From Drechmeria coniospora (lineage: Eukaryota > Ascomycota > Sordariomycetes > Hypocreales > Ophiocordycipitaceae), in contig NC_054391.1 of NCBI RefSeq assembly GCF_001625195.1, positions 558,001 to 622,000 on the forward strand: a stretch of DNA of 64,000 bases, given 5' to 3'. The notes below the pieces were generated by a model. That model had not been told where the DNA came from. It made no database searches and saw only the letters and a list, made by a program, of their open reading frames with translations. Within the stretch, counting starts at the first letter, position 1. The number at the start of each line of letters is the position of its first letter. Positions 1 to 45,755 of this stretch are shown piece after piece. The position numbers and the translations under genes were made by a program.

Positions 1-3000
1 AGGTTCCTGCTGATGTTCCCAGAATCGTAGTTGTTACTGCGGTATCGGGTGGCTGGCCTGGTGTTGTAGTAATAATGATTCTTGTTGTACATGGATGGGT
101 GCAGTCTGCGGGAGGTGTTACAGTAGATGTCCCGGGAACTGTGCCGGGAACGATTGTCGTTATAACAGTATCAGGTGGCTGCCCAGGAGTTGTAGTAATG
201 ACGATGATTGTGGTACATGGGTGCGTACAGTCTACTGGGGGTGTGATGGTAGATGTGCCAGGAATAGTACCAGATACAGTACTAGTCACAGCAGTATCGG
301 GCAGCTGGCCAGGCGTTGTAGTGACAATAATACTCGTTGTGCATGGATGTGTGCAATCCGTAGGAGGCGTTATTGTAAATGTCCCAGGAACCGTGCCAGG
401 AACGGTAGTCGTTATCGCAGTATCGGGTGGCTGTCCTGGGGTAGTAATTATAATAATACTTGTTGTGCATGGATGAGTACAGCCGGCTGGTGGCGTGATT
501 GTAGATGTTCCAGGTGATGTTCCTGGAATTGTAGTTGTTACTGCCGTATCAGGCGGCTGGCCAGGCGTTGTAGTAACAATAATGCTAGTTGTGCACGGGT
601 GCGTGCAGTCTACAGGAGGTGTAATTGTTGATGTTCCTGGCATTGTGCCAGGTACAGTTGTAGTAATTGCAGTATCAGGAGGCTGGCCTGGAGTAGTAAT
701 AATAACAATACTTGTTGTGCATGGATGAGTACAGTCAACTGGTGGAGTGATGGTAGTTGTGGCAGGAGATGTGCCTGGAATCGTTGTCGTTACCGCTGTG
801 TCGGGTGGCTGTCCAGGTGTAGTGGTGACAATAATACTTGTTGTGCACGGATGAGTACAGTCTGCGGGAGGTGTAACTGTTGATGTACCTGGAATCGTTC
901 CAGGTACCGTCCTAGTTATGGCAGTGTCAGGCGGTTGCCCAGGTGTTGTGGTTACAATAATGCTTGTTGTGCATGGATGGGTGCAGTCTGCAGGAGGCGT
1001 AGCTGTAGATGTTCCAGGAACTGTGCCAGGTACGGTTGTTGTTATAGCAGTGTCAGGTGGCTGCCCTTGGGTTGTAATAACAATGACAAGCGTCGTACAT
1101 GGATGAGTGCAGTCAACTGGTGGAGTGATTGTTGAGGTTCCAGGAGATGTTCCTGGAATCGTAGTCGTTACTGCTGTATCAGGCGGCTGCCCAGGTGTCG
1201 TAGTAATAATAATGCTTGTCGTGCAAGGATGCGTACAGTCTACAGGAGGCATAATTGTCGATGTACCTGGAATTGTTCCTGGTACAGTTGTCGTTATAGC
1301 AGTATCAGGTGGCTGGCCAGGAGTTGTAGTAATGATGATGATTGTGGTACATGGGTGCGTACAGTCAACTGCGGGAGTAATCGTAGATGTGCCAGGAATG
1401 GTACCCGCTACAGTACTAGTTATAGCAGTATCAGGCGTCTGGCCAGGAGTTGTAGTAACAATGATCCTTGTAGTGCATGGGTGCGTACAGTCTACAGGCG
1501 GTATAATTGTAGATGTGCCTGGAATAGTACCAGGTACAGTCGTAGTAATGGCAGTATCAGGTGGTTGGCCTGGGGTTGTAACAATGATGATACTTGTTGT
1601 GCATGGATGAGTACAGCCAGCCGGTGGTGTGATTGTAGATGTTCCCGGCGATGTTCCCGGAATTGTAGTCGTTACCGCTGTGTCAGGCGGCTGCCCTGTG
1701 GTGGTAATGATAATGATGCTTGTCGTGCATGGATGTGTACAGTCAACCGGCGGCGTAATTGTAGACGTTCCTGCAGAGGTTCCCAGAATCGTAGTGGTTA
1801 CTGCTGTATCAGGCGTCTGGCCAGGTGTTGTAGTAATAATAATACTTGTTGTGCACGGATGTGTGCAGTCTACAGGAGGTGTAATTGTTGATGTTCCTGG
1901 CATTGTGCCAGGTACAGTTGTAGTAATTGCAGTATCAGGAGGCTGGCCTGGAGTAGTAATAATAACAATACTTGTTGTGCATGGATGAGTACAGTCAACT
2001 GGTGGAGTGATGGTAGTTGTGGCAGGAGATGTGCCTGGAATCGTTGTCGTTACCGCTGTATCTGGCGGCTGCCCTGGGGTGGTAACGATAATGATACTCG
2101 TTGTGCATGGATGCGTACAGTCAATTGGCGGCGTGATTGTAGACGTTCCTGCAGATGTTCCCGGGATCATAGTCGTTATCACTGTATCCGGCGGCTGCCC
2201 AGTCGTTATTGTAACAATAATGCTAGTTGTGCACGGATGTGTGCAGTCTATCGGCGGAGTAATTGTTGATGTTCCAGGAGACGTACCTAGAACTGTTGAA
2301 GTGATGGCAGTATCAGGCGGCTGGCCTGGGGTAGTGACGATAATGATAGTTGTTGTGCATGGATGAGTACAGTCAACAGGTGGAGTGATTGTCGACGTTC
2401 CTGGTGATGTTCCGGGAATTGTAGTTGTTACCGCTGTATCTGGCGGCTGCCCTGGAGTGGTAACGATAATGATACTTGTTGTGCATGGATGTGTACAGTC
2501 AACTGGTGGCGTGATCGTAGATGTGCCTGGAATCGTGCCTGGTATAGTTGTAGTGATAGCAGTGTCAGTTGGTTGTGCTGAAATAGTAGTAATTATAATA
2601 CTTGTCGTGCATGGATGAGTACAATCAACAGGTGGCGTGATAGTAGATGTTCCAGGAGATGTTCCCAGAACCGTAGTGGTTACTGCTGTATCAGGCGGCT
2701 GCCCAGGTGTTGTAGTAACAATAACGCTAGTTGTACAAGGATGCGTACAGCCTATAGGAGGTGTAATTGTAGATGTACCTGGAATTGATCCAGATACAGT
2801 TGTAGTGATGGCAGTATCAGGCGGCTGTCCTTGTGTAGTAATAATAATAATACGTGTTGTACATGGATGAGTGCAGTCAACAGGTGGAGTGATTGTAGAA
2901 GTTCCTGGAGATGTTCCGGGAATCGTAGTTGTTACAGCTGTATCTGGTGGCTGCCCTGGGGTGGTAACGATAATGATGCTTGTTGTGCATGGGTGTGTAC

Positions 3001-7760: not shown

Positions 7761-8345
7761 GTAACCGTCCGAACTTTTGTTTGGGTCACAATAATCGTAG
7801 TAACGCAGTTGGACCTGCATCCCACATCGGGTGGGATTGTACTCGTTCCAGGGATCGGGCCATACGTAGTCTTTGTTAAATATCCGCCGGTAACGGTGAT
7901 AATGATGGATGTGATACAGTTTGTCGTGCATCCTGGTTGTGGCAAGATAGTGCTCGTTCCAGGTGTCGGGCCATATGTTGTCTCAGTTATGTATCCGCCT
8001 GTTACTGTTACGACGACGGTCGCGACACAACTCGAAGTGCAGTCAGGCGGTGGTAGAATTGTTGTCGTTCCGGCGATTGGCCCAGTCGTCGTTGACTGCA
8101 CCGTAATGCTGGCTGCGATGCAGTTGGTATAAGTCCTGCGTACTGGTTAATGTTATCTGCGTTTTGAGTTCTGTGGAGGGGATATACCGGAAGATGACCT
8201 CTTCTTTTGTCACACCAGAGCATACTGCTTGTAATGGTTGGTATTCGACAACAACAAGTCCTTGGTCACAGATATGGCGTTTGCTGAACCCGAGACCAAG
8301 GAGGCCGGAGCAGAGTGCTATACTTTGTAGCCAAGGACGGATCAT
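1..8345 (-). CDS. Giant Thr/Pro-rich tandem-repeat surface protein (adhesin A), 3' end outside window
   Basis: Exons are 8345-8188 and 8135 to beyond position 1. The ATG at 8345 (A at -3) opens a signal peptide (MIRPWLQS, then a Leu/Gly-rich core) and a short module with EYQPL and CSG motifs. Exon 2 stays open to the window edge. It begins with about three 37-residue units of the kind found in the giant gene at 24841-45755, then about 62 units of 42 residues containing DCTHPCTT, IIVT, a PGQPPDTA-like stretch and PGTST. Each unit has a C-x3-C pair and is rich in Thr and Pro, which suggests heavy O-mannosylation and an extended stalk. I infer a secreted or wall-associated adhesin because its paralogue carries a GLEYA domain. 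Any ligand-binding or anchoring domain of this gene would lie left of the window. At least 2,750 codons are present. The overall gene call is secure; the function is inferred. Confidence 0.9.
7780..8100 (-). repeat. Three N-terminal 37-residue units of adhesin A
   Basis: These units read TGGYITETTYGP, PGTSTILP, GC-x3-C and IIITVT on the minus strand. They are of the 111-bp class that dominates the other giant gene, whereas the rest of this gene uses the 126-bp class. This ties the two proteins to a common ancestor. Confidence 0.8.
8136..8187 (-). other. Phase-2 intron of adhesin A (52 nt)
   Basis: Read on the minus strand, the donor is GTATAT at 8187 and the acceptor is CGCAG ending at 8136, with an ATTAAC branch-like motif shortly before it. 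Splicing joins CG|G (Arg) to codons for TYT and moves from the signal-peptide frame into the repeat frame. An alternative AG (AACCAG) a few bases upstream would lead to a stop. The position and phase match the intron of the paralogue at 24999-25054. Confidence 0.85.
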
Positions 8346-13023: not shown

Positions 13024-15299
13024 TTACCGGTACCGCCCGTACCAAAATGACTGTTGGAGTGTCCTAGCCACCTCCGCTCGTAGTATTGTCCATTGATTCA
13101 GCAGGGGAGCTATTGGAGAGAAAGCATCGCCCCGGTAGGAAGACCAGTCAGACCGTATGCCAGTAGTGCATACAAAGCAGTGACTGCTCGGATCTCAAAA
13201 GAACTAGGTCATAAGAATAGCGGTGCTATTTAGCAAAGCCGGACGGCACCCCCAACGACCTTTGGGCAAAATCAACAAGAGGAGCGATGACCTTTATTCG
13301 GTACATTGGGAGAGAAGGGCAGAATTATGGACCACAACGAGCACATGATAAAGGGCACTGTCGGTCCTAGAATGGTAGTTTACATCGAAAACGTAAACCT
13401 CCGCTTCATACTTGGGATCTGGACGGCACGGAAATGGTCAGTCGGAGTCGGATAGGAGGAGCTGAAAGGAGGACGAGGTCGGGACCAGCAATTTCAACAG
13501 ATAATAGAGCATTCCGAGCAGGAATCCACCTCGCAAAGCCGCAGCGACTATCGAAATGACACAGCAGCGCGGCCGCACTACAGCAATGGGCACAGAATCA
13601 GCAACAACAAGGCCTGGCCGACCCGGCAGTACGAAATGGTCACACTTACGTCGGCGGAACCAAACCACAGTCCAGCGCGAGCCATAATACTAAAGCCAAC
13701 TGCTTTGACGGCCCTAGACTGCTCTGCAGCGCCTGGCTGCTATGCTAGAGGTGAAAGGAACGGCAACTGCAAGTCGACAGAGGTCTATTGGCAGGTTATC
13801 TGACCAATGTACCCTTTCTGCACACGACTTGACGAAACCCTGTAGACTATGGCTGCTGCCTATTTGAACGCAGCAGGTATGCTGCAAACCATGACCGTAC
13901 TCGTGGGATACCTTTCAACTGATAACGGGGACCATGGCCTAAAGCAACGGGGGTTAAATAATGGAAGCATTTTCCCAACTCTCGCTAGGTATGGATCAAT
14001 GTCCTGCAATTATGAGGGTCGCTGAGAACGGATCGAACGAGGTACGAATCCAACTCCTGTCCCGATGAGACAGCTCCGGCCTCCGACGTCGAAAACACAG
14101 ACTCTGATGTAAATCGCTGTAAGAGGCACCTACTTGCAGCAGCGAGTTACGTGGCAATAATGACAGATGCATTATAAAAACGCGAGCAGGAGCAGGACCT
14201 GCCTAAGGACCAGTTTGACAATCGATTTCAAAGTCGTATTTTACAACCATTGCAGGGGCGGCGCAATGGTCCATTCACGGGCAGTCATGCTATCGGGTCT
14301 TCAGGCGATTGCTACTCAGGTCGAAGCCGGCCATTTACCAAAGAAGATACCGACCTTGCAACAGTTAGCAGGGGACCGCTCGGAGAAGTCAACCTTGGTC
14401 TTCTCACGCAGGAAGGTGGCCAGTTGCAAAGGAGAGGTTATCGATTTACCGAAGATTACCTACGGCAACGTTGGCGCAGCGGTATGGAATGCCATGACCG
14501 GTACTGGCTCATCGGCGAAGCAGCATGACGAGAGGACCGTCGACTACCAGCATCCCGAAGGCTACCAATTATAGGCAGCGGATTACCCGCTTACGTGCTG
14601 CTGCAGCGTAGTGGCATCGCCCATTGGCATTCGGAAATGGAAGGACACGGCGTGTTCCGACTTGGTATACAGCCTCCATCGTCTTGTCGTCGTCATGCGC
14701 GAAAGGTCTTGGCGCTTCTGCGTGAGAAAACCTTGTGCTCTTGGCCCAGGCGCAGAACGGCGCATACTGCGTACGAAGCGTGAGGAGATACCACGACGAC
14801 AATGCCATGTACATAGGGTTGACCTGGACAGGGTACAGGCACACAACGCAAACAACTATCCGAATTGGCGCCGAAGAGTCTTGAGCGAACGAGAGATTCT
14901 GTAATTCGCAAAATCAAGCGAGGCCGGAAAATGCCCCCTCGTACGAGAGAAACGGTGTACAATGTGCCCGTCAGCGCAGGGTAGGCATCGGTTGAAATGC
15001 TGCCAACACATGGTCAGCTACCATCCATTCCATTCGAATCCAAACGAAAATCATCAAACGACCGCCTTGCTCCATGGCTGCTGATTGATTTCCGAGTCTC
15101 TCGGGATAGGCAGCCAAAGAAATCTGCGGACAACCAATCGGTCATTGCTGAGATTTGATGTCAAGTTCGCATGATCATACAGCCAGCTACTTTGCTCTAT
15201 GCGTTGCAGCAAGGAGGTTGGGGATGTTAAAGGAGCGTTATCCCTGCGTTCCAACCCAAGCTGACATAACGTTTCCATCGAACATTGGCAGGATGGTTT

Positions 15300-16535: not shown

Positions 16536-16552
16536 TCTAATCATCAACCGCA

Positions 16553-17010
16553 CCCTGCCATTGGACTGCTCCATGTCCGGATATCCGATCCAGAAGACGG
16601 ATAATGGCAATGCAGCCATCCAACTATATGGAGTAGATCTCTCGACTGGTCACTTTCATGTACAAATATCGAGGCTGCAGATATCGATGCCAACGGCCAA
16701 TACATTGTGCTCGGAACCAATGCTGGTGGATTCCCCAAAGGCAATCACCTCTGGTCGCAGATGGACCTATCCAGCAGCTCATCGGCCAACTTTGGAACTG
16801 TCGTGGCATCGGAGGCAACGCGATAGGCGCTGTACGGTTTGGACAACAACTCTGGCAACATCTACCAGCTGAACGTTGTTGGCAACGAACCGATGCAACT
16901 CGTCACACAAACAGGTCAATCGTCCATCAACAACGACGGAGCAAGATGTGTCGCGTCGACTCTCTCGATCCGACTGGAGCGGGTGCCGATGACACGGTGC
17001 GGCACGATGC
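16553..17010 (+). pseudogene. Decayed adhesin C-terminal domain, copy 2
   Basis: A second relic follows directly. LDCSMSGYPIQK and IQLYGVDLSTGHFHV are followed by an internal deletion, then a frame change into EAADIDANGQYIVLG, HLWSQMDLSSSSSANFG and TVVAS. After another deletion come DNNSGNIYQLNVVGNEPMQL and INNDGARCVAS. The order matches the intact C-terminal domain at 44930-45710. Two copies in tandem imply a duplication before decay. Confidence 0.85.
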
Positions 17011-17264
17011 AGCAAGGTACATGACCTGGCATGATGATGATGCCATTTCCTTGCACTTTCATTCATGGACCTATTTCGAACCGTATCATTGTGTCGGAAT
17101 AAGCGTGCCCCTCTTGGTGCGAAGTGGTGACCGTCTCCGTCGGCGCCGTGCTTGTCCGGAGCCCGGTTTCGCACCGGAACGTGCAAGGTAGGTCCTTTAT
17201 GATTCGGAGCGTAGTATGCTGCCGAGTTTTGCCGATTTCCCCACGAGCATGCGCGGATATGATG

Positions 17265-30800: not shown

Positions 30801-33800
30801 AGTACTATCCGTCCAAGTTCCGGGTGTACAGGAAACTGTCCGACTAGAATCATCGTCACCGTTACAGGCATGATCGTAACAGTATCCACGTTTGGACCAT
30901 CAGCTGGAACCAGTACGATACTGCCAACGAATTCCGAATGTCCTGATGCAAGTTTGATGCGCCGCCGTGGCATTGTACCAAGAAACGAAAACTGCCCAAC
31001 GACAATTGTTGTGACCGTTCCCACCACAGGCGTCGTCACGACATCGACATACGGCCCAACAGCCGGAACTAGTACGGTTTTGCCATCATCAGGATGCATT
31101 GGCAACTGCCCTACGACGATTATTGTAACTGTGCCTACTACTGGAGTCATTACACAATCTACAGTTGGACCGACAGCAGGAACGAGTACAATTTTGCCAT
31201 CGTCAGGATGCACGGGAAACTGCCCGACAAGAATTATCATAACCGTAACAGGAAGAATCATTACGGAAACGACGTTTGGACCATCGCCTGGGACGAGTAC
31301 GATTCCTCCGCCAGCAGGATGCACAGGCAACTGTCCGACCAGAGTTATTGTTACAGTTACTGGTGGAATGATTACGGAAACCATGCTTGGGCCAACTCCT
31401 GGTACAAGCACTGTTCCTCCTCCAGCCGACTGCACAGGCAACTGTCCGACTAGAGTTATTGTTACAGTTACTGGCATGATCATGACAGTAACAACGTTTG
31501 GTCCAACGCCTGGTACAAGCACGATTCCTCCTCCAGCCGACTGCACAGGCAACTGTCCGACCAGAGTAATCGTCACTGTAACGGGCAGAATCATTACGGA
31601 AACTACCTTTGGCCCAGCGCCTGGTACAAGCACAATTCCTCCCTCCGCTGGCTGCACAGGCAACTGTCCGACTAGAGTTATTGTTACAGTTACTGGTATG
31701 ATCATGACAGTAACAACGTTTGGTCCAACGCCTGGTACAAGTACGATTCCTCCTCCAGCCGACTGCACAGGCAACTGTCCGACCAGGGTTATTGTTACCG
31801 TGACCGGGAGAATAGTCACGGAAACGACCTTTGGTCCGGCGCCAGGCACAAGTACAATTCCACCTTCGGCTGGTTGTACAGGCAATTGCCCAACCAGAAT
31901 TATTGTTACCATAACGGGTGGAATGATTACGGAAACCACTTTGGGTCCGGCGCCCGGGACAAGTACGATTCCTCCGCCAGCAGGATGCACAGGCAACTGC
32001 CCGACTAGAGTTGTTGTTACGGTTACCGGCATGATCATTACAGTAACAACGTTTGGTCCAGCGCCTGGTACGAGCACGGTTCCTCCTCCAGCCGACTGCA
32101 CAGGCAACTGTCCGACCAGAGTCATTGTTACGGTAACTGGCGGAATGATTACGGAAACCATGCTTGGGCCAACTCCTGGTACAAGCACTATTCCACCTCC
32201 CGTTGGCTGTACAGGCAACTGCCCGACTAGAGTGATTGTTACAGTAACTGGCAGAATCGTCACTGAAACGACGTTTGGTCCAGCGCCAGGGACGAGCACG
32301 ATTCCTCCATCCGCAGGCTGCACAGGCAACTGCCCGACTAGAGTTATTGTTACGGTTACCGGCATGATCATCACAGTGACAATGTTTGGCCCAGCGCCTG
32401 GTACAAGCACGATTCCTCCTCCAGCCGACTGCACAGGCAACTGTCCGACCAGAGTGATCGTTACTGTAACGGGAAGAATCGTCACTGAAACGACGTTTGG
32501 TCCAGCGCCAGGGACGAGTACGATCCCACCATCCGCCGGCTGCACGGGCAACTGTCCTACCAGAATCATCGTTACTATAACTGGTGGAATGATTACCGAA
32601 ACCACCTTTGGCCCAGCACCTGGTACTAGCACAATTCCTCCACCGGCGGGCTGCACGGGCAATTGCCCGACCAGAGTCATTATTACAGTAACGGGCCGGA
32701 TCATTACAGAAACAGCCTTTGGTCCAGCCCCCGGAACAAGCACAATCCCACCTTCTGCCGGTTGTACAGGCAATTGCCCAACCAGGATTATCGTCACAGT
32801 CACTGGCGGAATGGTCACAGAAACCACCTTTGGCCCAACACCTGGCACCAGTACAATTCCTCCATCGGCAGGCTGTGTAGGTAATTGCCCGACTAGGATT
32901 ATCGTTACGGCAACGGGCATGATCATCACCGAAACCACTCTTGGTCCATCGCCTGGTACAAGCACTATTCCGCCTTCCGCTGGCTGCACGGGCAACTGCC
33001 CAACTAGAGTTGTCGTCACCGTAACTGGCAGAGTCATTACGGAAACGACGTTTGGTCCAGCGCCTGGCACGAGTACTATTCCTCCTTCTGCCGGCTGTAC
33101 AGGCAACTGCCCGACTAGGATCATCGTGACGGTAACCGGCATGATCATTACGGAAACGACCTTTGGACCAGCGCCTGGCACAAGTACTATTCCTCCTTCC
33201 GCCGGCTGTACAGGAAACTGCCCAACCAGAATTATCGTTACCGTAACTGGAGCAATGGTAACGGAGACCACGCTTGGCCCGACAGCCGGCACCAGTACAA
33301 TTCCCCCTTCGGCAGGCTGCATAGGCAACTGCCCGACTAGAATTATCGTAACAGTAACCGGCATGATCGTCACGGAAACTACATTTGGTCCAGCGCCTGG
33401 CACGAGTACTATTCCTCCTTCTGCCGGCTGTACAGGCAACTGCCCGACTAGGATTATCGTGACGGTAACCGGCATGATCATTACGGAAACGACCTTTGGA
33501 CCAGCGCCTGGCACAAGTACTATTCCTCCTTCCGCCGGCTGCACAGGCAACTGTCCGACTAGAGTCATTGTTACCGTGACAGGAAGAATCATTACGGAAA
33601 CGACTTTTGGCCCAGCGCCCGGTACAAGCACAATTCCACCTTCCGCCGGTTGCACAGGAAACTGCCCAACGAGGATCATTGTCACCGTAACTGGTGGTAT
33701 GATTACAGAAACCACCTTGGGTCCGACGCCCGGAACTAGCACGATTCCTCCACCGGCGGGGTGCACAGGAAACTGCCCGACTAGGATTATCGTGACAGTA

Positions 33801-36800
33801 ACCGGCATGGTTATTACGGAAACGACCTTTGGACCATCACCTGGTACGAGCACTATTCCTCCGGCCGCCGGCTGCACTGGAAACTGCCCGACTAGGATCA
33901 TAGTTACAGTCACCGGCATGATCATTACGGAATCGACCTTTGGTCCAACACCCGGCACTAGTACGATTCCTCCATCAGCTGGCTGCACAGGCAACTGTCC
34001 AACTAGAGTCATTGTTACCGTGACGGGCATGATCGTGACGGAAACGACGTTTGGACCATCGCCAGGTACAAGTACAATTCTGCCTTCCGCTGGCTGTACT
34101 GGCAACTGCCCAACCAGGATTGTTGTCACTGTAACTGGTGGAATGATTACGGAAACCATGCTTGGGCCAACTCCTGGTACAAGCACTGTTCCACCTCCCG
34201 CTGGCTGCACAGGCAACTGCCCGACTAGGATTATCGTAACAGTAACCGGCATGATCATAACGGAAACCACCTTTGGTCCAGCACCTGGCACGAGCACTAT
34301 TCCTCCATCCGCCGGCTGCACAGGCAACTGTCCGACTAGGATTATCGTTACAGTAACTGGCATGATCATTACGGAAACGACCTTTGGTCCGGCGCCTGGT
34401 ACAAGTACTATCCCGCCTTCTGCCGGCTGCACAGGCAACTGCCCGACTAGAATCATTGTGACGGTGACAGGTCTGATCATCACGGAAACCACCCTTGGAC
34501 CAGCACCTGGTACAAGCACTATTCCCCCGTCCGCTGGTTGCACAGGCAACTGTCCCACAAGGATCATCGTTACAGTAACTGGCATGATCATTACGGAGAC
34601 GACATTTGGACCAACGCCTGGCACAAGTATCATTCCACCTTCCGCTGGCTGTACAGGCAACTGCCCGACAAGGATTATCGTCACAGTAACTGGCGGAATG
34701 ATTACAGAAACCACGTTGGGTCCATCGCCTGGAACAAGTACGATTCCTCCATCAGCGGGATGCACAGGAAACTGCCCGACTAGGATCATCGTAACAGTAA
34801 CCGGCATGGTCATTACAGAAACGACTTTTGGACCAGCACCTGGTACGAGCACTATTCCTCCATCTGCCGGTTGTACTGGCAACTGCCCGACTAGGATTAT
34901 CGTGACAGTAACCGGCATGGTCATTACGGAAACGACCTTTGGACCAGCACCTGGTACGAGTACTATTCCTCCCTCCGCTGGCTGCACAGGCAATTGCCCG
35001 ACAAGGATTATTGTTACCATTACTGGAACAGTAATGACGGAAACAACATTTGGTCCTACGCCTGGTACTAGCACGATTCCACCATCATCCGGATGTACAG
35101 GCAACTGCCCGACAAGGATTATTGTTACCATTACTGGAGCAGTAATGACGGAAACAACATTTGGTCCTACGCCTGGTACTAGCACGATTCCACCATCATC
35201 CGGATGCACAGGCAACTGCCCGACCAGAATCATCGTTACAGTAACCGGCATGATCATTACGGAAACTACATTTGGTCCAGCACCTGGTACGAGTACGATT
35301 CCACCTTCGGCCGGCTGTACGGGCAACTGTCCGACTAGGGTTATCGTAACAGTAACTGGCCTAATCATTACGGAAACCACATTTGGTTCAGCACCTGGTA
35401 CGAGCACGATTCCACCGTCCGCCGGCTGTACAGGCAACTGCCCAACAAGAATCATCGTCACAATTACAGGTGACATCATTACAGAAACCACATTTGGCCC
35501 GACGCCTGGTACCAGCACTATTCCACCATCATCAGGATGTACCGGCAACTGCCCGACGAGAATTATCGTCACGGCAACAGGAATCATAGTAACAGTGTCT
35601 ACGTTTGGACCATCAGCCGGAACGAGTACAATATTACCGACGAATTCCGAATGTCCCGATGCAGATTTAATGCGCCGCCGTGGCATTGTACGAAGAAATG
35701 AAAACTGTCCTACGACAATTGTTGTAACCGTTCCCACCACGGGTGCCATTACAGAATCCACCTTTGGCCCAACAGCCGGAACTAGTACGATATTGCCATC
35801 ATCAGGGTGTGTCGGCAACTGCCCCATAACCATCATTGTAACTTTGCCGACCACTGGAGTCATCACGCAATCCACAATGGGACCGACGGCAGGGACGAGT
35901 ACGATTTTGCCGTCGTCTGGATGCACAGGGAACTGCCCAACTAGAATTATTGTTACCTTTACAGGTGACGTTATGACAGAAACAACATTTGGACCGGTCC
36001 CAGGGACAAGCACCATTCCGCCCGCGTCAGGGTGTACAGGCAACTGCCCGACGAGAATAGTTGTTACCGTGACTGGCGCAATTATAACGGAAACAACGTT
36101 TGGTCCTTCGGCTGGAACTAGCACAATGGCACCATCTGGATGTTCATCAGATTGCACGACGAGAATAATTGTTACTGTCCCCTTTGAAACGCAGTCCGAC
36201 TTCAATCCAACAGATAGCATTACTCTAATCTTCCCCACGTCTACCACGGATACTGTTTCCGAGACTGGCGGCTTTGTTACAGAAACGACATTTGGTCCTG
36301 CGCCTGGTACGAGCACTGTTCCACCTTCATCTGGGTGCACAGGCAACTGTCCAACAAGGGTTGTCGTGACCGTTACAGGAGCTATTACCACAGAGACAAC
36401 ATTTGGTCCAGTCCCTGGTACAAGTACTATCCCACCATCGTCAGGCTGCACAGGCAACTGCCCAACGAGAATCGTAGTTACTGTCACAGGTGACATTGTT
36501 ACAGAAACAACCTTTGGTCCTGCGCCTGGTACGAGCACCATTCCACCTTCATCTGGGTGCACAGGCAACTGCCCAACAAGAATTGTTGTAACTGTTACAG
36601 GAGCTATCACCACAGAGACAACACTCGGTCCAGTGCCTGGTACGAGCACTATTCCTCCAGCCACGGGATGTACTGGAAACTGCCCAACTAGAATTGTCGT
36701 TACTATCACAGGTGACATTATTACAGAAACCACACTTGGTCCAGTTCCTGGTACCAGCACTATTCCGCCAGCGACCGGATGTACTGGAAACTGCCCGACG

Positions 36801-39800
36801 AGAATTATTGTGACCGTTACAGGTGCAATTACTACAGAGACAACATTCGGACCAGTTCCTGGAACAAGCACGATTCCTCCGGCCACGGGATGTACTGGCA
36901 ACTGCCCAACAAGAATTGTCGTCACTATTACAGGTGAAATTATTACAGAAACGACACTTGGTCCAGTTCCAGGAACCAGTACTATTCCTCCAGCCACTGG
37001 ATGTACTGGCAACTGTCCTACAAGAATCATCGTTACTGTTACTGGCGCCATCACAACCGAGACGACATTCGGTCCAGTGCCTGGCACGAGCACCATTCCT
37101 CCGGCGACAGGATGTACTGGGAACTGTCCTACGAGAATTGTCGTTACCATTACAGGTGATATTATTACAGAGACGACACTTGGTCCAGTTCCAGGTACCA
37201 GTACTATTCCGCCAGCCACTGGATGTACAGGCAACTGTCCCACTATAATTATTGTAACCGTTACAGGAGTTATTACTACAGAGACAACATTTGGCCCAGT
37301 GCCTGGTACGAGCACCATTCCTCCAGCCACGGGATGCACTGGGAATTGTCCTACAAGAATTGTTGTTACTATTACAGGCGATATCGTTACAGAGACAACA
37401 CTTGGTCCGGTGCCAGGTACCAGTACTATTCCTCCTGCTACTGGATGTACTGGAAACTGCCCAACGATAATTATCGTGACCGTTACAGGCGCTATTACCA
37501 CAGAGACAACGTTTGGCCCAGTTCCTGGTACAAGCACCATTCCTCCGGCCACCGGATGCACTGGCAATTGTCCTACGAGAATTGTTGTTACCATCACAGG
37601 GGATATAGTTACAGAGACAACACTTGGTCCCGTGCCAGGTACCAGTACTATTCCTCCGGCCACCGGATGTACTGGCAACTGCCCAACCAGAATTATCGTG
37701 ACCGTCACAGGCGCTATCACTACGGAGACAACATTCGGTTCAGTGCCGGGCACAAGCACCATTCCTCCAGCCACGGGATGTACAGGCAACTGCCCAACAA
37801 GAATTGTCGTCACCATTACAGGCGACATCATCACCGAGACAACATTTGGTCCTTTGCCTGGAACTAGTACGATTCCGCCAGCATCGGGTTGTTTGTCAAG
37901 TTGCACCACGACGATAATTGTCACTGAACCGTTTGCTACGCAGTCTGACTTCAATCCCACTGACAGTATCAGTCTGATAACCCCCACCACTGGTGGCTAT
38001 GTTACAGAGACTGTATTCGGCACGGAACCCGGCACAAGCACAATTCCGCCTACTGCTGGGTGTGTTGGCAACTGTCCTACCAGTATCATAGTAACTGTTA
38101 CTGGTGGCTATGTTACGGAAACTGTATTCGGATCGGATCCAGGAACAAGTACCATTCCGCCCACTGCCGGATGCGTTGGCAACTGCCCAACCAGTATCAT
38201 TGTTACTGTTACTGGCGGCTATGTTACAGAAACTGTATTTGGATCAGACCCCGGAACAAGCACCATCCCGCCTACCGCTGGGTGTGTTGGCAATTGTCCT
38301 AATAGTATTATAGTTACCGTTACAGGTGGCTACGTCACGGAAACTGTGTTTGGATCCGATCCTGGAACAAGCACCATTCCGCCTACTTCTGGATGCGTCG
38401 GCAACTGTCCTACTAGCATCATTGTTACTGTTACCGGCGGCTATGTTACCGAGACTGTCTTTGGATCGGACCCAGGAACAAGCACTATTCCTCCGACTTC
38501 TGGATGCGTCGGCAACTGCCCGACGAGTATTATTGTTACAATCACAGGTGGATATGTGACGGAAACCGTTTTCGGATCCGACCCTGGGACAAGCACCATT
38601 CCTCCTACTTCTGGTTGTGTCGGTAACTGTCCTACCAGCATCATCATTACTGTTACTGGTGGATACGTTACGGAAACCGTAGTTGGATCAGAAGCAGGTA
38701 CAAGCACCATTCCACCCACCTCTGGATGTGTTGGCAATTGCCCTACTAGTATCATTGTAACCGTTACTGGTGGCTACATTACCGAAACTGTCTTTGGGTC
38801 GGATCCTGGTACCAGTACAATTCCACCTACGGCTGGGTGTGTTGGCAACTGCCCTACCAGCATCATTGTCACCGTCACTGGCGGATACGTTACAGAAACT
38901 GTTTTTGGATCCGATCCTGGTACGAGTACTATCCCACCGGCCTCTGGGTGTGTTGGTAACTGCCCTACCAGCATCATTGTTACTGTTACCGGTGGTTATG
39001 TGACGGAAACTGTATTTGGATCCGACCCAGGAACGAGCACTATTCCACCTACAGCTGGATGTGTTGGCAACTGCCCTACCAGTATCATAGTTACCGTTAC
39101 TGGTGGTTACGTAACAGAAACTGTCTTTGGATCCGACCCAGGAACGAGCACTATTCCACCTACAGCTGGATGTGTTGGCAACTGCCCTACCAGTATCATA
39201 GTTACCGTTACTGGTGGTTACGTAACAGAAACTGTCTTTGGATCCGACCCAGGAACGAGCACTATTCCGCCTACTTCTGGGTGTGTTGGCAACTGTCCTA
39301 CCAGTATTATTGTTACTGTTACTGGTGGATATGTCACGGAAACCGTCTTTGGATCGGACCCTGGAACAAGTACTATTCCGCCTACTTCTGGATGCGTTGG
39401 AAACTGCCCCACCAGTATCATTGTCACCGTTACTGGAGGGTACGTCACCGAGACTGTATTTGGATCGGACCCAGGAACAAGCACCATTCCCCCTGCTTCT
39501 GGATGCGTTGGCAACTATCCTACCAGCATTATAGTCACAGTGACTGGTGGTTACGTTACGGAGACTGTATTTGGATCGGACCCCGGAACAAGCACCATTC
39601 CACCTACTTCTGGATGCGTTGGCAACTGTCCTACTAGCATCATAGTTACTGTTACTGGTGGCTACGTCACGGAGACTGTCTTTGGATCAGACCCTGGAAC
39701 GAGCACCATTCCGCCTACTGCTGGGTGTGTTGGCAATTGCCCTACTAGTATTATTGTCACCGTCACCGGCGGGTACGTTACTGAGACGATTTTTGGTTCG

Positions 39801-42800
39801 GACCCCGGAACAAGTACCATTCCGCCCACTGCTGGATGTGTTGGCAACTGTCCTACTAGTATCATTGTCACCGTTACTGGCGGTTATGTTACAGAAACCG
39901 TATTCGGATCAGACCCTGGTACGAGTACAATTCCACCTACTGCTGGATGCGTTGGCAACTGTCCTACAAGTATCATTGTCACCGTTACCGGCGGATATGT
40001 CACGGAAACCGTCTTTGGATCGGATCCTGGCACAAGTACCATTCCACCTACCGCTGGATGCGTTGGTAACTGCCCTACAAGTATCATTGTCACCGTTACT
40101 GGTGGTTATGTTACAGAAACCGTCTTTGGATCAGACCCTGGCACGAGTACAATTCCACCTACAGCTGGATGTGTTGGCAACTGCCCTACCAGTATCATAG
40201 TTACCGTTACTGGTGGTTACGTGACAGAAACTGTCTTTGGATCAGATCCTGGTACCAGCACAATCCCACCTACCGCTGGATGCGTCGGCAACTGCCCAAC
40301 CAGTATCATTGTTACTGTTACTGGGGGGTACGTTACGGAAACTGTCTTTGGATCGGATCCTGGTACAAGTACAATCCCACCTACCGCTGGATGCGTCGGC
40401 AACTGTCCTACCAGCATCATTGTTACCGTTACTGGCGGGTATGTTACAGAGACTGTCTTTGGATCAGACCCAGGCACAAGCACCATTCCACCTACCGCTG
40501 GGTGCGTCGGTAACTGTCCAACTAGTATCATTGTTACCGTTACTGGTGGATACGTGACAGAAACCGTCTTTGGGTCGGATCCTGGTACGAGCACAGTTCC
40601 ACCTACTGCTGGATGTGTTGGCAACTGTCCTACCAGTATTATAGTAACCGTTACTGGTGGCTATGTTACGGAAACTGTATTCGGATCGGATCCAGGAACA
40701 AGTACCATTCCGCCTACTGCCGGATGCGTTGGCAACTGCCCAACCAGTATCATTGTCACTGTTACTGGCGGCTATGTTACAGAAACTGTCTTTGGATCAG
40801 ATCCTGGTACCAGCACAATCCCACCTACTGCTGGATGCGTCGGCAACTGTCCTACTAGTATCATTGTCACCATTACTGGTGGTTATGTTACAGAAACCGT
40901 ATTCGGATCAGACCCTGGTACGAGTACAATTCCACCGACTGCTGGATGCGTCGGCAACTGTCCTACCAGTATTATCGTTACCGTTACTGGCGGGTATGTC
41001 ACGGAAACCGTCTTTGGATCGGATCCTGGCACAAGCACCATTCCACCTACCGCTGGATGCGTTGGCAACTGCCCTACAAGTATCATTGTTACCGTTACTG
41101 GTGGCTACGTTACGGAAACCGTCTTTGGATCAGACCCAGGAACAAGCACCATTCCACCTACCGCCGGATGCGTTGGCAACTGTCCTACTAGTATCATTGT
41201 TACCGTTACTGGCGGATACGTGACAGAAACCGTCTTTGGATCGGATCCTGGTACGAGCACAGTTCCACCTACTGCTGGATGTGTTGGCAACTGTCCTACC
41301 AGTATTATAGTAACCGTTACTGGCGGTTATGTTACAGAAACTGTATTTGGATCAGACCCCGGAACAAGCACCATCCCGCCCACCGCTGGATGTGTTGGCA
41401 ATTGTCCTACTAGTATTATAGTTACCGTCACTGGTGGCTACGTTACCGAGACTGTATTCGGATCGGACCCTGGAACAAGCACTATTCCGCCCACTGCTGG
41501 ATGTGTTGGCAACTGTCCTACTAGTATCATTGTTACTGTTACTGGTGGGTACGTCACCGAAACTATCTTTGGGTCCGATCCTGGTACCAGTACTATTCCA
41601 CCTTCGCCAGGATGCGTTGGCAACTGTCCTACCAGTATCATTGTTACGGTTACGGGCGGTTATGTTACGGAGACGATCTTCGGGTCCGATCCTGGTACGA
41701 GTACTATTCCACCTTCACCTGGGTGTGTTGGCAATTGCCCTACCAGTATTATTGTTACAGTTACCGGAGGATATGTTACAGAAACCATTTTTGGGTCCGA
41801 TCCTGGCACAAGTACCATTCCGCCTTCACCTGGGTGTGTTGGTAATTGCCCTACCAGTATTATTGTCACAGTTACGGGAGGTTATACCACGGAAACGACA
41901 ATTGGTCCCGATCCCGGTACAAGTACTATTCCACCTTCCCCTGGATGTGTTGGCAATTGTCCTACTAGTATTATCGTCACTGTGACTCCCGTTTATGTTA
42001 CTACTACTGAGCCATGGACCGGTACTATAACTACAACCATTACGTCACCGCCTAGTGGCACCAATGCAGGAACCGTTATTGTCCAGACTCCAACTATATG
42101 TTCTGCTCCAGTACCCTGTAACAATCTTGGGTTTACCTGGGCGTATTATAATAACTCTGCAATAAATGTTGACGCAACCTACTCCTCATTCAGCCCGGAG
42201 TCTTTCAAAAATGTGACGCCAATTTACGTAGGTACTACTAACTACGTAGGGGGCAACTACGTTACTGCACCAACTGGACCTATCTACAATTCCACGGTCA
42301 TATTCAAACTATTCAATTTTGCCATCAACCATTACGGATACCTCTTTTCTTGCATATCTGGCGTGTATAATATTAGTATTACTAATGTTGACGATGCTGT
42401 CTACTTGTGGACTGGTCCAAAAGCTTATTCTGGTTGGACCGATGCCAACGCCGATGCGAAAGCTATTTATAATCAGCCCGCTCATGTTGCCGGCAGTGCC
42501 CTCTTTAGCTTTTTTGTTCCGGAGTATACCTACATACCTATTCGATTTTTTTACGGCCAGGCACAGAATGGAGGTACCTGGACCTTTAGTATCGTTAATC
42601 CTAACGGCAGTGTTATTGCTAGTAACCAGCCGACGAATAACCCATATCTAGTCCAGTACTCATGCGATAACACAACTGCTCCCCCGTTCGTTACAACTCC
42701 TGGGGGCTTTGTCACAACAACAATCTTCGGGCCGAATCCTGGCACAAGTACAATCCCGCCATCTCTTGGATGCTCTAGTTCCTGTCCTACTAGTATCATC

Positions 42801-45755
42801 GTTACCGTGACTGGAGGATATGTCACTCAGACGATCACGGGGCCTTTGCCGGGTACGACTACAATACCACCTTCAGCTGGATGTGCTGGTAACTGCCCGA
42901 CTACAATCATAATCACCCAGCCGCCTGATGTTGCTACTACAACTACCATCACGACTGGGTCCGTGTATGGAACAACGACAATTGCTCCTTCATCCGACTG
43001 CACACACCCATGCACCTCTACTGTCGTTGTTACTCAGCCAGCAGATGTATATTTCACCTCTACCATTACCAGCGGGTCGGTATATGGAACGACGACGATT
43101 GCTCCCACATCGGACTGCACACACCCGTGCACATCTACTGTCATAGTTACTCAGCCATCAGATGTGTACTTTACTACTACCATTACAACCGGAGCCGTTT
43201 ATGGAACAACGACAGTCGCTCCCACGTCTGATTGTACTCACCCTTGCACCTCTACTGTCATTGTTACGCAGCCAGCCGATGTGTATTTCACTACTACCAT
43301 CACCAGCGGATCGGTTTATGGAACAACGACGATTGCTCCCACATCTGATTGTACACATCCATGCACCTCTACAATCATAGTTACCCAGCCATCAGATGTT
43401 TACTTTACAACTACCATCACTACTGGAGCCGTTTATGGAACAACAACAGTCGCTCCCACGTCTGACTGCACACACCCGTGCACATCTACTGTCATAGTTA
43501 CTCAGCCATCAGATGTGTACTTTACTACTACCATTACAACCGGAGCCGTTTATGGAACAACGACAGTCGCTCCCACGTCTGATTGTACACACCCATGCAC
43601 TTCTACCGTCATCGTCACTCAGCCAGCCGATGTGTATTTCACTACTACTATCACTACTGGAGCCATTTATGGAACAACGACGGTTGCACCTACGTCTGAT
43701 TGTACACACCCATGCACCTCTACTGTTATCATTACTCAGCCGGCAGATGTGTATTTCACAACCACCATCACCACCGGAGGCGTTTATGGAACAACAACAG
43801 TCGCTCCCACGTCTGACTGTACACATCCATGCACCTCTACCGTCATCGTTACGGAGCCAGCAGATGTGTATTTCACTTCTACCATTACCAGTGGGTCAGT
43901 CTATGGAACGACGACGATTGCTCCTACATCCGACTGCACGCATCCATGCACCTCTACCGTCATAATTACCCAGCCGTCAGATGTGTATTTCACTACTACC
44001 ATCACCACCGGAGCCGTTTATGGCACAACAACGGTTGCTCCTACGTCTGACTGCACACACCCATGCACCTCTACTGTCATCGTTACGCAGCCAGCAGACG
44101 TGTATTTCACCTCTACCATTACCAGCGGGTCGGTATATGGAACGACGACGATTGCTCCTACATCGGACTGCACACACCCATGCACCTCTACCGTCATCAT
44201 TACACAGCCATCAGATGTGTATTTTACTACTACCATCACAACCGGAGCTGTATATGGAACAACGACAGTCGCTCCCACGTCCGACTGTACACATCCATGC
44301 ACCTCTACTGTCATCATTACCCAGCCGTCAGATGTGTATTTCACCTCTACAATTACCAGCGGGTCGGTATATGGAACGACGACGATTGCTCCCACGGCCG
44401 GCTGCACGCATCCCTGCACCTCTACTGTTATCATTACCCAGCCATCAGATGTATATTTCACTACTACGATCACAACCGGAGCCGTTTATGGAACAACGAC
44501 AGTCGCTCCCACGTCCGACTGTACACACCCGTGCACATCTACCGTCATCATTACCCAGCCGGCAGATGTGTATTTCACAACTACCATCACCACCGGAGGC
44601 GTCTATGGAACAACAACAGTCGCTCCCACGGCAGGCTGCACGCATCCATGCACCTCTACCGTCATCATTACCCAGCCGTCAGATGTCGCTACGACGACTA
44701 CCATCACCGCCGGGGCCGTTTATGGAACATCGACGATTCCTCCCTCGGCTGGCTGCACGCATCCATGCACCTCCACCATCGTCATCACTCAGCCCATGGA
44801 TGTTGTGCTAACTACAACAATAACTTCTGGATTTACCCGTACCACAACAACCGTCAACCCCAGTGTGGGCTGCACGCATCCTTGCACCACAAGTGTCGTT
44901 GTAGTGGTTACGCAAACACCACCTCCTCCTCTCAACTGTTCCATATCCGGGTATTTGATTCAGAAGAGCAACGACAACGCGCCCATCCAACTGTTTGGCG
45001 TGGATCTGGCCACGGGTCAACTAAATCTTCTGGGCGGAAACGTTTCCGGAGATACTGGCATTGGATTCATCAATTCCATTGGATTCAACTCTCAGGACAA
45101 TTATATTTACGGAGCCACTCGCGGAGGACAACTGGTTCGAATCGGAGCTGGCGGTCAGGTTCAGCCATTGCCGTACAACATCCCGTACCAGAGCTCCAAT
45201 TCGGGGGATATATTACCCAGCGGTCGCTACGTCGTCCTTGGTGGTGCAAGAACGGCTTCCTTGCCGGAAGGGAATTACGATTGGTCTGAAATCGACCTGT
45301 CCAGTAACCTGTTGCCCACCTTTGGAACCGTCGTGGCTTCGGGACAAGCTCGCCATGCTACGTTCCAAGTGAGCGACATAGCGTACGTGCCCGGTGGTGG
45401 GAATGCCATGTACGCGTTTGGCTTCGGATTCGTCGGATGCGGCTCATCCTGCACGTTTATCAATCTTGCTCAGTTTAACCTGACAACCCATACCTGGACG
45501 ATCATCAAGAACCTGGGGAGCGTTGCTGGAAATACCATTGGAGCCGTCTACGGATCAAACAACGGCTACCTCTACGGTTCCGACAACGTCTCTGGAAATA
45601 TTTACAGCATTGATATCGTCAACAATGGGCCGCTTCAACTTGTGTCGACGACGAATCAAACAACACAAAACAATGACGGAGCGAGATGCATCGACGCATC
45701 GAATCCGAACATTACCACTGTTAGCGTTCTTCCGACCGCAACAGACACGCCTTAG
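24841..45755 (+). CDS. Giant GLEYA-domain repeat adhesin B, about 6,952 residues
   Basis: Exons are 24841-24998 and 25055-45755. The ATG at 24841 (A at -3) gives a signal peptide (MNAQRFAIVAFVHLF); another in-frame ATG at 24817 has a poorer context. Order: DYQPF/CSG module; Thr-rich lead-in; about 147 units of 37 residues (GTST, C-x3-C, IIVT) in four blocks (residues about 105-5697) split by SD-x-NPT linkers; a yeast-flocculin-like TEPWTGT linker; a GLEYA/PA14-type domain (about 5737-5911) with Asp-Asp at 5832-5833 in the position of the Ca-binding DcisD motif; two more 37-residue units; 17 units of 39 residues with CTHPC; and a propeller-like domain resembling DUF6923 (about 6677-6937) starting at NCSISGYLIQK. 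There is no hydrophobic tail for a GPI anchor. GLEYA domains in yeasts bind glycans; surface adhesion is inferred here. The mass would be near 0.7 MDa before glycosylation. Confidence 0.93.
24999..25054 (+). other. Phase-2 intron of adhesin B (56 nt)
   Basis: Donor GTATGA at 24999, branch site GCTAAC at 25038-25043, acceptor CCCCAG ending at 25054. It joins CG|A (Arg) to codons for TYTTY and moves the reading frame into the long exon, which has no in-frame ATG of its own upstream. It matches the intron of adhesin A in phase and in the flanking R-TYT residues. Confidence 0.9.
25364..28235 (+). repeat. Adhesin B repeat block I (111-bp units, about 26)
   Basis: The 37-residue units are diverse at first (FGPTPGTS, GYCPT variants). 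From about 26990 they become uniform GGFITETTFGPVPGTST / AGCTENCPT units. It ends at the first linker. Confidence 0.9.
28236..28310 (+). other. Linker 1 in adhesin B (residues about 1113-1137)
   Basis: A non-repeat segment with ESDVNPTLSIS and PSSTPEVTQTGGF lacks the C-x3-C motif and replaces the normal unit. Related linkers occur at 36176-36265 and 37921-37990. Confidence 0.8.
28311..36175 (+). repeat. Adhesin B repeat block II (111-bp units, about 71)
   Basis: The units are dominated by TGRIITETTFGPAPGTST / SAGCTGNCPTR. Two irregular inserts carry an MRRRG tribasic motif at about 30929-30985 and 35642-35700, each followed by VPTTG-type variant units. Recent near-exact tandem duplicates occur, for example at about 35010-35220. 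Confidence 0.92.
36176..36265 (+). other. Linker 2 in adhesin B (residues about 3759-3789)
   Basis: The segment reads VPFETQSDFNPTDSITL followed by a Thr/Ser stretch, with no C-x3-C pair. It follows a shortened unit with GCSSDC and precedes block III. Confidence 0.8.
36266..37920 (+). repeat. Adhesin B repeat block III (222-bp dimers)
   Basis: About 15 units alternate between GAITTETTFGPVPGTST and GDIITETTLGPVPGTST forms, both with ATGCTGNCPT. This gives a 222-bp higher-order period from about 36590 to 37850. Confidence 0.92.
37921..37990 (+). other. Linker 3 in adhesin B (residues about 4341-4364)
   Basis: The segment reads EPFATQSDFNPTDSISL and is nearly the same as linker 2. It follows a unit with GCLSSC and precedes block IV. 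Confidence 0.8.
37991..41990 (+). repeat. Adhesin B repeat block IV (111-bp units, about 36)
   Basis: This is the most uniform block, with TGGYVTETVFGSDPGTST and GCVGNCPTS. 39015-39125 and 39126-39236 are identical. Near-identical tracts recur at 6 units (40575 and 41241) and 23 units (38101 and 40654). One unit has lost its second cysteine (TAT at 39516-39518). Confidence 0.93.
42110..42630 (+). other. GLEYA/PA14-like adhesin domain within adhesin B
   Basis: This non-repeat segment contains FTWAYYNN, GYLFSCISGVYNISI, NVDDAVYLWTG, SGWTDANADAKA and PIRFFYGQAQNGGTWTFSI. That order is typical of the GLEYA branch of PA14 lectin domains. It is the only globular domain inside the repeat stalk. The family assignment is from motif recognition, not from a profile search. 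Confidence 0.88.
42915..44925 (+). repeat. Adhesin B repeat block V (117-bp units, 17 CTHPC motifs)
   Basis: The 39-residue units contain CTHPCTSTV, ITQP-DVYFTTTIT and VYGTTT. SGSV and TGAV subtypes partly alternate. The DCTHPC core is the one used throughout adhesin A. The last units diverge (DVVLTTTITSGFTR) before the C-terminal domain. Confidence 0.93.
44930..45752 (+). other. C-terminal DUF6923-like domain of adhesin B
   Basis: Conserved stretches are NCSISGYLIQK, LFGVDLATGQL, GFNSQDNYIYGATRGGQL, IGAGGQ, GRYVVLGG, GTVVASGQARHATFQVS, YVPGGGNAMYAFG, NNGYLYGSDNVSGNIY and NNDGARC. The pattern of short beta-rich repeats suggests a propeller. The DUF6923 label is from memory of the family. The protein ends in TATDTP without a hydrophobic tail. 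Confidence 0.75.

What the first reader, a model, noticed from the sequence alone, without database searches (positions are those of the whole stretch)
1..45755. Divergent pair of giant C-x3-C repeat adhesins
Two genes of at least 2,750 and about 6,950 codons share a signal-peptide exon, a CSG module, one intron and Thr/Pro repeats with a C-x3-C pair. Gene B adds a GLEYA domain in the stalk and a propeller-like C-terminus. More than 160 C-x3-C motifs in one secreted chain would give a very long, disulfide-studded fibre. I do not know of a described system with this architecture; that novelty is a judgement without a search.
Basis: partly seen in the sequence, partly recalled or inferred. Interest (0 to 1): 0.9.

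Follow-up and report, generated by a model that had tools for sequence, protein, structure and literature searches.

The report
Giant modular adhesin-like gene family
Two enormous repeat-filled surface-protein genes in a nematode-killing fungus appear to belong to a large family that shares one front end and varies its tips, probably long tethers that help spores stick.

Summary
Gene A (4,214 aa once followed past the window) and gene B (6,952 aa) are uninterrupted two-exon genes with 92 and 164 C-x3-C motifs; B's units are under purifying selection (dN/dS about 0.09). The genome matches Drechmeria coniospora ARSEF 6962. The reading as a unique pair fails: 49 open frames of at least 2,000 codons carry one of four head types (GLEYA, DUF6923, a glycine-rich domain, an unnamed domain); one runs into assembly Ns and is dropped. 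In 35 of 49 a match to the same signal/CSG exon lies at the far 5' end (null means below 1). Thirty-six of 49 lie within 600 kb of a contig end (5.4 expected). None of 34 distinct C-termini checked by hydropathy shows a GPI-like tail, a layout like fission-yeast adhesins. Most likely role: secreted, wall-associated tethers of the adhesive conidium. Secretion, adhesion, disulfides and anchoring are inferred; both structure predictions had low confidence; only 7 frames were read in full. Gene B is the only one of the 49 with two head types. GLEYA and ALS expansions are already published; I did not find the scale, shared exon and head swapping in the papers searched.

The parts
8188..8345 (-). 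Gene A exon 1: hydrophobic leader plus CSG module (VEYQPLQAVCSG)
   Evidence: aligned with 23 other N-terminal peptides, B's included,
8136..8187 (-). Gene A intron (52 nt, phase 2). The script ranked a 79-nt alternative with the same donor first; I prefer 52 nt because it gives the R-TYT join seen in paralogs
1..8135 (-). Gene A exon 2, part inside the window; continues to a stop at C3:553649, beyond the left edge. 42-aa CTHPC-type repeats, then a glycine-rich C-terminal domain outside the window (PF21722 E 8e-5, 23.2 bits, just under the cut-off of 24.3)
15265..17021 (+). Broken relic of another family member's 3' end: C-x3-C repeat pieces followed by pieces of a DUF6923 domain, in different frames
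   Evidence: (PF21959 E 7.6e-4, 19.8 bits, under the cut-off of 27)
24841..24998 (+). Gene B exon 1: hydrophobic leader plus CSG module (VDYQPFEIICSG)
   Evidence: 36 genome matches at E up to 1
24999..25054 (+). Gene B intron (56 nt, phase 2, GTATGA..GCTAACG..CAG)
25055..45755 (+). Gene B exon 2, uninterrupted to the stop
25400..41971 (+). Gene B main stalk (start approximate): 37-aa (111-bp) Thr/Pro repeats with C-x3-C, in blocks
42318..42596 (+). GLEYA domain (PF10528) inside the stalk; has a DD pair (NVDDAVYLW); groups with Fusarium GLEYA proteins and one unnamed protein
42942..44794 (+). Second stalk block: 39-aa (117-bp) CTHPC-type repeats
44955..45692 (+). C-terminal DUF6923 domain (PF21959)

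Best explanation
A and B are two members of a large, mostly chromosome-end family of giant secreted adhesin-like proteins in Drechmeria coniospora. Typical members have a common exon 1 (leader plus a short CSG module), a phase-2 intron, and one huge exon coding a Thr/Pro repeat stalk that ends in one of several head domains, with no GPI-like tail. Proposed working: the chain is secreted, the N-terminal end stays with the cell wall or the mucilage of the adhesive conidial knob, the stalk holds the head far from the surface, and the head binds sugars or proteins on the nematode cuticle. C-x3-C pairs would clamp the repeats into short disulfide loops, making a stiff, protease-resistant tether. 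In gene B a lectin-type GLEYA domain sits partway along the stalk and a DUF6923 domain at the tip; gene A ends in a glycine-rich domain. Repeat arrays appear to evolve by exchange within each gene, and heads appear to be swapped and tandemly duplicated. Shown here: gene structure of A and B, family size and layout by search, selection on B's repeats, head assignments, chromosome-end clustering. Inferred: secretion, glycosylation, disulfides, which end is anchored, cuticle binding, expression.
For: Exon-1 matches at 50 loci in two searches at E up to 1; phase-2 intron as the script's best model in 26 of 33 loci examined, the rest being 3 without a model, 3 phase 0 and 1 phase 1; 2 of the 26 (L091, L092) have no CSG in the modelled exon 1. 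49 head-bearing frames of at least 2,000 codons, 35 with the exon-1 match at 0.957-1.019 of the frame length from the head, null means 0.24 and 0.83, maximum 5. Heads: GLEYA 23, DUF6923 10, glycine-rich 9, unnamed 8, gene B counted twice. Purifying selection on B's units. Units of A and B are homologous (hhalign probability 99.1, E 7.7e-19). Units are more alike within a gene than between genes in 4 of 5 genes compared, a tie in the fifth, and more alike at short range within B. None of 34 distinct C-termini from 50 loci has a hydrophobic GPI-like tail (highest 15-residue hydropathy mean 0.81). Published: GLEYA protein DCS_00041 and glycine-rich protein DCS_06014 of this strain are up-regulated in infection, and conidia carry an adhesive knob (PMC4792172, passages).
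Against: No binding, localisation or expression data for A or B. [quoted passage not shown] 14 of 49 frames have no exon-1 match, and the pairing used weak matches (E up to 0.32). Only 7 of the 49 frames were read in full. No signal-peptide or GPI predictor was available. My DD pattern matched in only 4 of 30 GLEYA loci, B among them and one of them outside the site, so the calcium-site pair is not general in the family. Structure predictions of the repeat and of DUF6923 were poor. Relatedness of C-x3-C repeats to flocculin/ALS repeats was not supported.
Confidence: 0.7

Rival explanations
1. Matrix proteins: the giants are bulk components of the conidial mucilage or knob glue, acting by mass, hydrophobicity and cross-linking, and the heads are assembly or cross-linking modules rather than host receptors.
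For: No GPI-like tail in the C-termini checked, very high Thr and Pro with paired Cys, many paralogs with different heads, DD pair missing from most GLEYA copies checked.
Against: GLEYA is described as a carbohydrate-binding domain of fungal adhesins (PMC6308950 passage) and B's copy has the DD pair; head diversity is more than a glue would seem to need.
Confidence: 0.2
2. Fungus-fungus recognition: the family serves self or non-self contact, hyphal fusion or mating, and its diversity reflects that.
For: [quoted passage not shown]
Against: Near-obligate parasite with adhesive spores; a GLEYA protein and a glycine-rich protein are reported up-regulated in infection (PMC4792172).
Confidence: 0.1
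3. Artefact or junk: the frames are accidental open frames in satellite-like repeats, or were invented or collapsed in assembly.
For: A 3,330-codon antisense frame (27998-37990, -) exists over B's array, showing that repeats can give long accidental frames; one frame elsewhere (11,522) runs through Ns; the assembly has 190 N per 10 kb (PMC4792172, table).
Against: dN/dS about 0.09 and strong third-position variation in B, conserved Cys by an independent anchor; average synonymous divergence between B's units is near saturation, so they are not recent assembly copies; 7 of 7 frames read in full are free of N and stops. The selection test was run on B only.
Confidence: 0.04

Closest known systems
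Fission-yeast GPI-less adhesins (Linder and Gustafsson family; Map4, Mam3)
   Same: Leader, Ser/Thr-rich tandem repeats, no GPI signal, sugar-binding type GLEYA or DIPSY domain at the C-terminus (PMC6308950, PMC6023273, PMC13147542; passages seen). The original 2008 paper was not seen.
   Different: Here a conserved CSG exon, four head types, C-x3-C repeats and chromosome-end clusters; the median of the 49 frames is 4,136 codons. That fission-yeast members are much shorter is recalled, not checked.
Flo/Epa adhesins with PA14/GLEYA lectin domains
   Same: GLEYA fold family, repeat stalk with repeat-driven length change (PMC8621652 passages). That their genes often lie near chromosome ends is recalled.
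   Different: Their lectin is N-terminal and the chain is GPI-anchored; here the head is C-terminal or mid-stalk and no GPI-like tail was seen.
Candida ALS and flocculin repeats (PF05792, PF00624)
   Same: ALS-type units follow exon 1 in many members and build the stalk of the neighbour at C3:528393-542378.
   Different: No ALS N-terminal domain was found in the parts scanned; C-x3-C units could not be linked to this repeat type.
Arthrobotrys entomopaga 'Zonadhesin' (P0008, 943 aa) and Fusarium GLEYA proteins (P0003-P0005)
   Same: P0008 carries the same pair DUF6923 + GLEYA as gene B; GLEYA domains of named Fusarium proteins are 55-57% identical to B's and an unnamed protein, P0002, 62%; P0002-P0005 group with B.
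   Different: 331-943 aa; by eye no C-x3-C array and no CSG module in the five sequences printed.
Blastomyces BAD-1
   Same: Secreted without GPI, tandem repeats with two Cys each (PMC6023273 passage).
   Different: 24-residue Trp-rich repeats and a chitin-binding C-terminus; no sequence comparison made here.
D. coniospora 'paralogous group 2' repeat proteins and the 9 GLEYA / 10 ALS proteins of the 2016 papers
   Same: Probably fragments or members of this same family (PMC4859500, PMC4792172; passages).
   Different: Reported as short or few proteins, without the common layout in the passages seen; identity of individual genes was not tested, supplements could not be read.

Membership tests
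GLEYA domain (PF10528), gene B | Match above the curated cut-off | tested here: met
   85.7 bits against 26.2
GLEYA domain (PF10528), gene B | Calcium-site DD pair and sugar binding | tested here: inconclusive
   DD pair read in B's sequence, motif taken from PMC6308950; binding not testable here
Fission-yeast GPI-less C-terminal-head adhesins | Signal peptide | tested here: inconclusive
   Hydrophobic N-terminal leader in A, B and paralogs by eye; no predictor run
Fission-yeast GPI-less C-terminal-head adhesins | Internal tandem repeats | tested here: met
   37, 39 and 42 residues
Fission-yeast GPI-less C-terminal-head adhesins | No GPI signal | tested here: met
   No hydrophobic tail in B or the other 33 distinct C-termini, nor by eye in A; hydropathy only
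Fission-yeast GPI-less C-terminal-head adhesins | GLEYA or DIPSY domain at the C-terminus | tested here: not met
   B's GLEYA is mid-chain and DUF6923 is terminal; A ends in a glycine-rich domain. Several paralogs do end in GLEYA
Flo/Epa GPI-anchored adhesins | N-terminal PA14/GLEYA lectin | tested here: not met
   No Pfam match above a cut-off in the N-terminal parts of A or B that were scanned
Flo/Epa GPI-anchored adhesins | C-terminal GPI signal | tested here: not met
   hydropathy or eye only
Candida ALS family | ALS repeat PF05792 above cut-off | tested here: inconclusive
   B N-terminus 22.2 bits against 25; neighbour C3:528k 39.3 and 43.6 bits
Candida ALS family | N-terminal Ig-like ALS domain | tested here: not met
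   No such match in the N-terminal pieces scanned
ALK/LTK glycine-rich domain PF12810, gene A | Match above the cut-off | tested here: not met
   10.5 bits against 24.5; PF21722 gave 23.2 against 24.3

The most novel reading that the evidence does not exclude
The species-specific repeats that flank each D. coniospora chromosome are, in good part, a living repertoire of around fifty giant tethers with a constant front (one exon, one intron) and swappable tips, renewed by recombination at chromosome ends in the way other pathogens renew surface antigens, so that which tips are expressed sets which nematodes, or which part of the worm, a spore sticks to. The tethers are mounted the opposite way round from budding-yeast adhesins, by the N-terminal CSG end.
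Probability: 0.3. Interest if true: 0.88.

Novelty: new variant of a known kind. Interest (0 to 1): 0.7.

Why it matters
D. coniospora is widely used to infect C. elegans, and its spores must stick to the cuticle; as far as I know the molecules that do this are not settled. The family gives a concrete set of candidates with named heads, a shared exon by which members can be located, and a possible reason why earlier annotations reported short or few proteins. If the heads are the receptors, the system would show how a fungus builds and diversifies very long tethers without a GPI anchor.

Tried and rejected
Unique divergent pair: rejected. Accidental open frame or assembly invention: rejected for B by selection; the other six frames read in full are at least free of N and stops. 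The 11,522-codon frame on C2 was dropped: by position it starts at C2:5153829 and runs into Ns within about 160 bases. Descent of C-x3-C repeats from flocculin/ALS repeats: attractive by eye, not supported (hhalign score 12.2; 30 column-shuffled controls up to 15.4). RIP indices: distorted by Thr/Val-rich coding sequence, I draw nothing from them. GLEYA search among giant proteins: 2,254 candidates, none at E 0.001. Rfam on the window at gathering scores: 0; tRNAs: 0. PF12810 and PF21722 genome searches: 0 matches at E 0.001, gene A included, the first without any control ringing. NCBIfam on four pieces: 0. Pfam on 10 longer frames between A and B: only the DUF6923 relic and a sub-threshold Tachystatin_B match. 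Paper search for DUF6923: 0 papers. Fold searches were never accepted. Strand-shuffled null for the exon-1 pairing: mean 14.9, maximum 23 against 30 of 41 observed; this null leaves about half of the true pairs in place, so it is weak. Choices behind counts: frames under 2,000 codons and hits on small contigs were left out of the 49; exon-1 matches were taken up to E 1; the ALS and C-x3-C hits entered were picked from incomplete listings, and frames known only by them were not counted in the 49; one search compared every third 37-codon unit; the tree holds 28 of the 64 GLEYA matches (two of 30 loci left out).

Full report
WHAT IS THERE. The window has no Ns. On the plus strand, gene B starts at 24841, has one 56-nt intron (24999-25054) and a single exon 2 to the stop at 45755: 6,952 aa, 164 C-x3-C motifs, 340 Cys. 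On the minus strand, gene A starts at 8345, has a 52-nt intron (8187-8136) and runs off the left edge. The 30 kb beyond the edge were fetched; the frame stops at C3:553649, giving 4,214 aa with 92 C-x3-C motifs and a glycine-rich C-terminus. Both exon 1s are 158 nt and carry Y-Q-P...C-S-G.

IS IT CODING. From 135 units of 37 codons in gene B, mean entropies at codon positions 1, 2, 3 are 0.51, 0.35, 1.60 and dN/dS over 3,000 random unit pairs is about 0.09. Those units were chosen by C-x3-C, so Cys conservation was retested with an anchor that ignores Cys: 141 of 144 carry C-x3-C. Neighbouring units are more alike (nucleotide identity 0.775 at lag 1, 0.713 at lag 20, 0.598 at lag 120 with 15 pairs). 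The opposite strand also has a 3,330-codon frame over the array (27998-37990), so frame length alone is not proof; the selection test is the stronger evidence. It was run on B only.

DOMAINS. B: GLEYA at 42318-42596 (85.7 bits, cut-off 26.2) and DUF6923 at 44955-45692 (70.8 bits, cut-off 27). By sequence the nearest solved chains to the GLEYA part are CEA1 (5a3l, E 0.013) and 6hos (E 0.036), both weak. A: glycine-rich domain, PF21722 23.2 bits, just under its cut-off of 24.3. The 42-aa unit of A and the 37-aa unit of B are homologous (hhalign 99.1%, E 7.7e-19).

WHICH ORGANISM. The window lies in contig C3 (9,751,215 bp) of a 32.8-Mb genome with C1 12,542,233 and C2 10,204,147 bp. A chitinase in the window (62611-63750) is 99% identical over 92% to Drechmeria coniospora RJ55_07246; the next best is 80%. 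The published chromosomes of strain ARSEF 6962 are 12.5, 10.2 and 9.8 Mb (PMC4792172, passage). I take the assembly to be that one.

A FAMILY, NOT A PAIR. GLEYA: 64 matches, all above the cut-off. DUF6923: 37 matches, some of them pieces of one domain. A's glycine-rich domain: 10. B's exon 1: 36 matches at E up to 1, 27 of them under 1e-3 (count). A's exon 1: 29; the union is 50 loci. A fourth C-terminal domain, from the neighbour at C3:528393-542378: 15. Grouping gives 49 head-bearing frames of at least 2,000 codons: GLEYA 23, DUF6923 10, glycine-rich 9, unnamed 8, gene B being the only one with two kinds. In 35 of 49 an exon-1 match lies on the same strand at 0.957-1.019 of the frame length from the far end of the head, so exon 1 is at one end and a head at the other; random placement gives a mean of 0.24 (maximum 4) and shifting by 20-200 kb a mean of 0.83 (maximum 5). 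Fourteen are unpaired; one of these, the C3:528k neighbour, does have a VEYQPLKNICSG exon when read directly. The median length is 4,136 codons.

CHECKS ON THE COUNT. Seven frames were read in full, none with N or internal stop: A, B, the C3:528k neighbour, and C2:193k, C1:354k, C3:324k, C2:415k, the last four with 104, 96, 103 and 99 C-x3-C motifs. For the 11,522-codon frame on C2 only the start was read; by position it runs into Ns at once (1,518 N in 3,001 bases of L096) and it is discarded, leaving 48. The other 41 frames rest on the search tool's own frame lengths.

WHERE. 36 of 49 lie within 600 kb of a contig end, 5.4 expected (binomial P 2e-24). Clustered duplicates are not independent, so the P value is too small. 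An exact TTAGGG triplet was found once, internally; the tool warns that simple repeats may be skipped, so I cannot say whether the contig ends are true telomeres. The 2016 paper states that each chromosome is flanked by about 0.5 Mb of species-specific repeats (PMC4792172, passages); I infer that these arrays are a good part of them.

GENE STRUCTURE OF PARALOGS. At 33 loci (31 fetched, A, B) the script's best splice model was phase 2 in 26, phase 0 in 3, phase 1 in 1, none in 3; in 2 of the 26 (L091, L092) the modelled exon 1 lacks CSG. The script rewarded the Y-x-P...C motif and splice signals, not the phase. Some loci look decayed, and the space between A and B holds a broken family relic at about 15265-17021.

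STALKS AND HEADS MIX. The C3:528k neighbour has the same kind of exon 1 but a Cys-poor stalk of WTGT/ALS-type 35-aa units (4 Cys, no C-x3-C) and the fourth head. Units of 37 codons are more alike within a gene than between genes in 4 of 5 genes compared; in the fifth, C3:324k, within-gene identity ties with that to C2:193k (0.63 each). A tree puts B's GLEYA with three Fusarium proteins and the unnamed P0002 (support 96/95) and 25 of the other 27 D. coniospora GLEYA copies used in one group (100/98); the two exceptions, C2:4249k and C3:40k, lie on B's side on long branches, and the root is only a midpoint. So B's lectin is of a different lineage from most of the copies compared. My DD pattern matched in 4 of 30 GLEYA loci, one of them outside the site: B's copy has it, most relatives do not in that strict form.

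ATTACHMENT. Of 50 GLEYA and DUF6923 loci, 34 gave distinct C-termini, 7 repeated one of these and 9 had no stop in the stretch held; none of the 34 has a hydrophobic tail (highest 15-residue mean 0.81). A few of those segments are fragments of decayed genes. GLEYA adhesins without GPI signals and with C-terminal ligand domains have been taken to suggest another form of wall attachment (PMC6308950, passage). Which end is held is not known; the conserved N-terminal module is my candidate.

STRUCTURE. Five units gave an AlphaFold model of mean pLDDT 49 with a recurring long strand after the second Cys. DUF6923 with one homolog gave mean pLDDT 49 and 16 strands, nearly no helix: compatible with a propeller, not evidence for one. 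Fold searches were not accepted.

LITERATURE. Read as passages, not whole: PMC4792172, PMC4859500, PMC7500977, PMC6308950, PMC8621652, PMC6023273, PMC13147542, PMC3828140. PMC4792172 reports 9 GLEYA and 10 ALS proteins as expanded, DCS_00041 (GLEYA) and DCS_06014 (glycine-rich) as up-regulated in infection, and none of the 10 ALS genes transcribed at a high level. PMC4859500 reports a 10-member group made entirely of repeats, mostly in under 50 kb, with a spore-specific member. I did not find the giant common-exon family in the searches; supplements could not be read.

VERDICT. Real, large and more interesting as a family than as a pair: a new variant of a known kind (GPI-less repeat adhesins with heads at the C-terminal side), with function inferred.

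Noticed in passing
C3:528393-542378 (-), outside the window (L008/L009): Third giant neighbour, 4,662-codon frame, WTGT/ALS-type stalk with only 4 Cys, same kind of CSG exon, an unnamed C-terminal domain with 15 genome matches.
   Followed up: yes
window 15265-17021 (+): Broken relic of a family member between A and B.
   Followed up: partly
C3:547192-552681 (-), outside the window (L007/L008): Three adjacent frames that look by eye like a copia-type retroelement directly downstream of gene A; no family search was run on them.
   Followed up: no
window 27998-37990 (-): 3,330-codon antisense frame over B's repeat array, probably a by-product of the repeat composition.
   Followed up: no
G000 C2:5134000-5155500: Inverted copies of a C-x3-C gene start with matching scores on both strands, followed by Ns on one side; could be a real palindrome or an assembly fault. 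May correspond to the published repeat-protein cluster of under 50 kb.
   Followed up: partly
G000 C2:9832589-9832606: Only exact TTAGGG triplet the search returned, internal, shortly after a frame with four GLEYA matches; possibly an interstitial telomere mark.
   Followed up: no
window 46112-46887: Non-coding tandem repeats just downstream of gene B (9-bp and perfect 17-bp units).
   Followed up: no
window 62611-63750 (+) and 58991-60100 (+): GH18 chitinase and a piece of a major-facilitator transporter beside the adhesin cluster.
   Followed up: partly
head-bearing giant frames genome-wide: 19 of 49 carry more than one head match (gene B's two kinds included, and some DUF6923 pairs may be pieces of one domain); several GLEYA pairs within one gene are near-identical.
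   Followed up: partly
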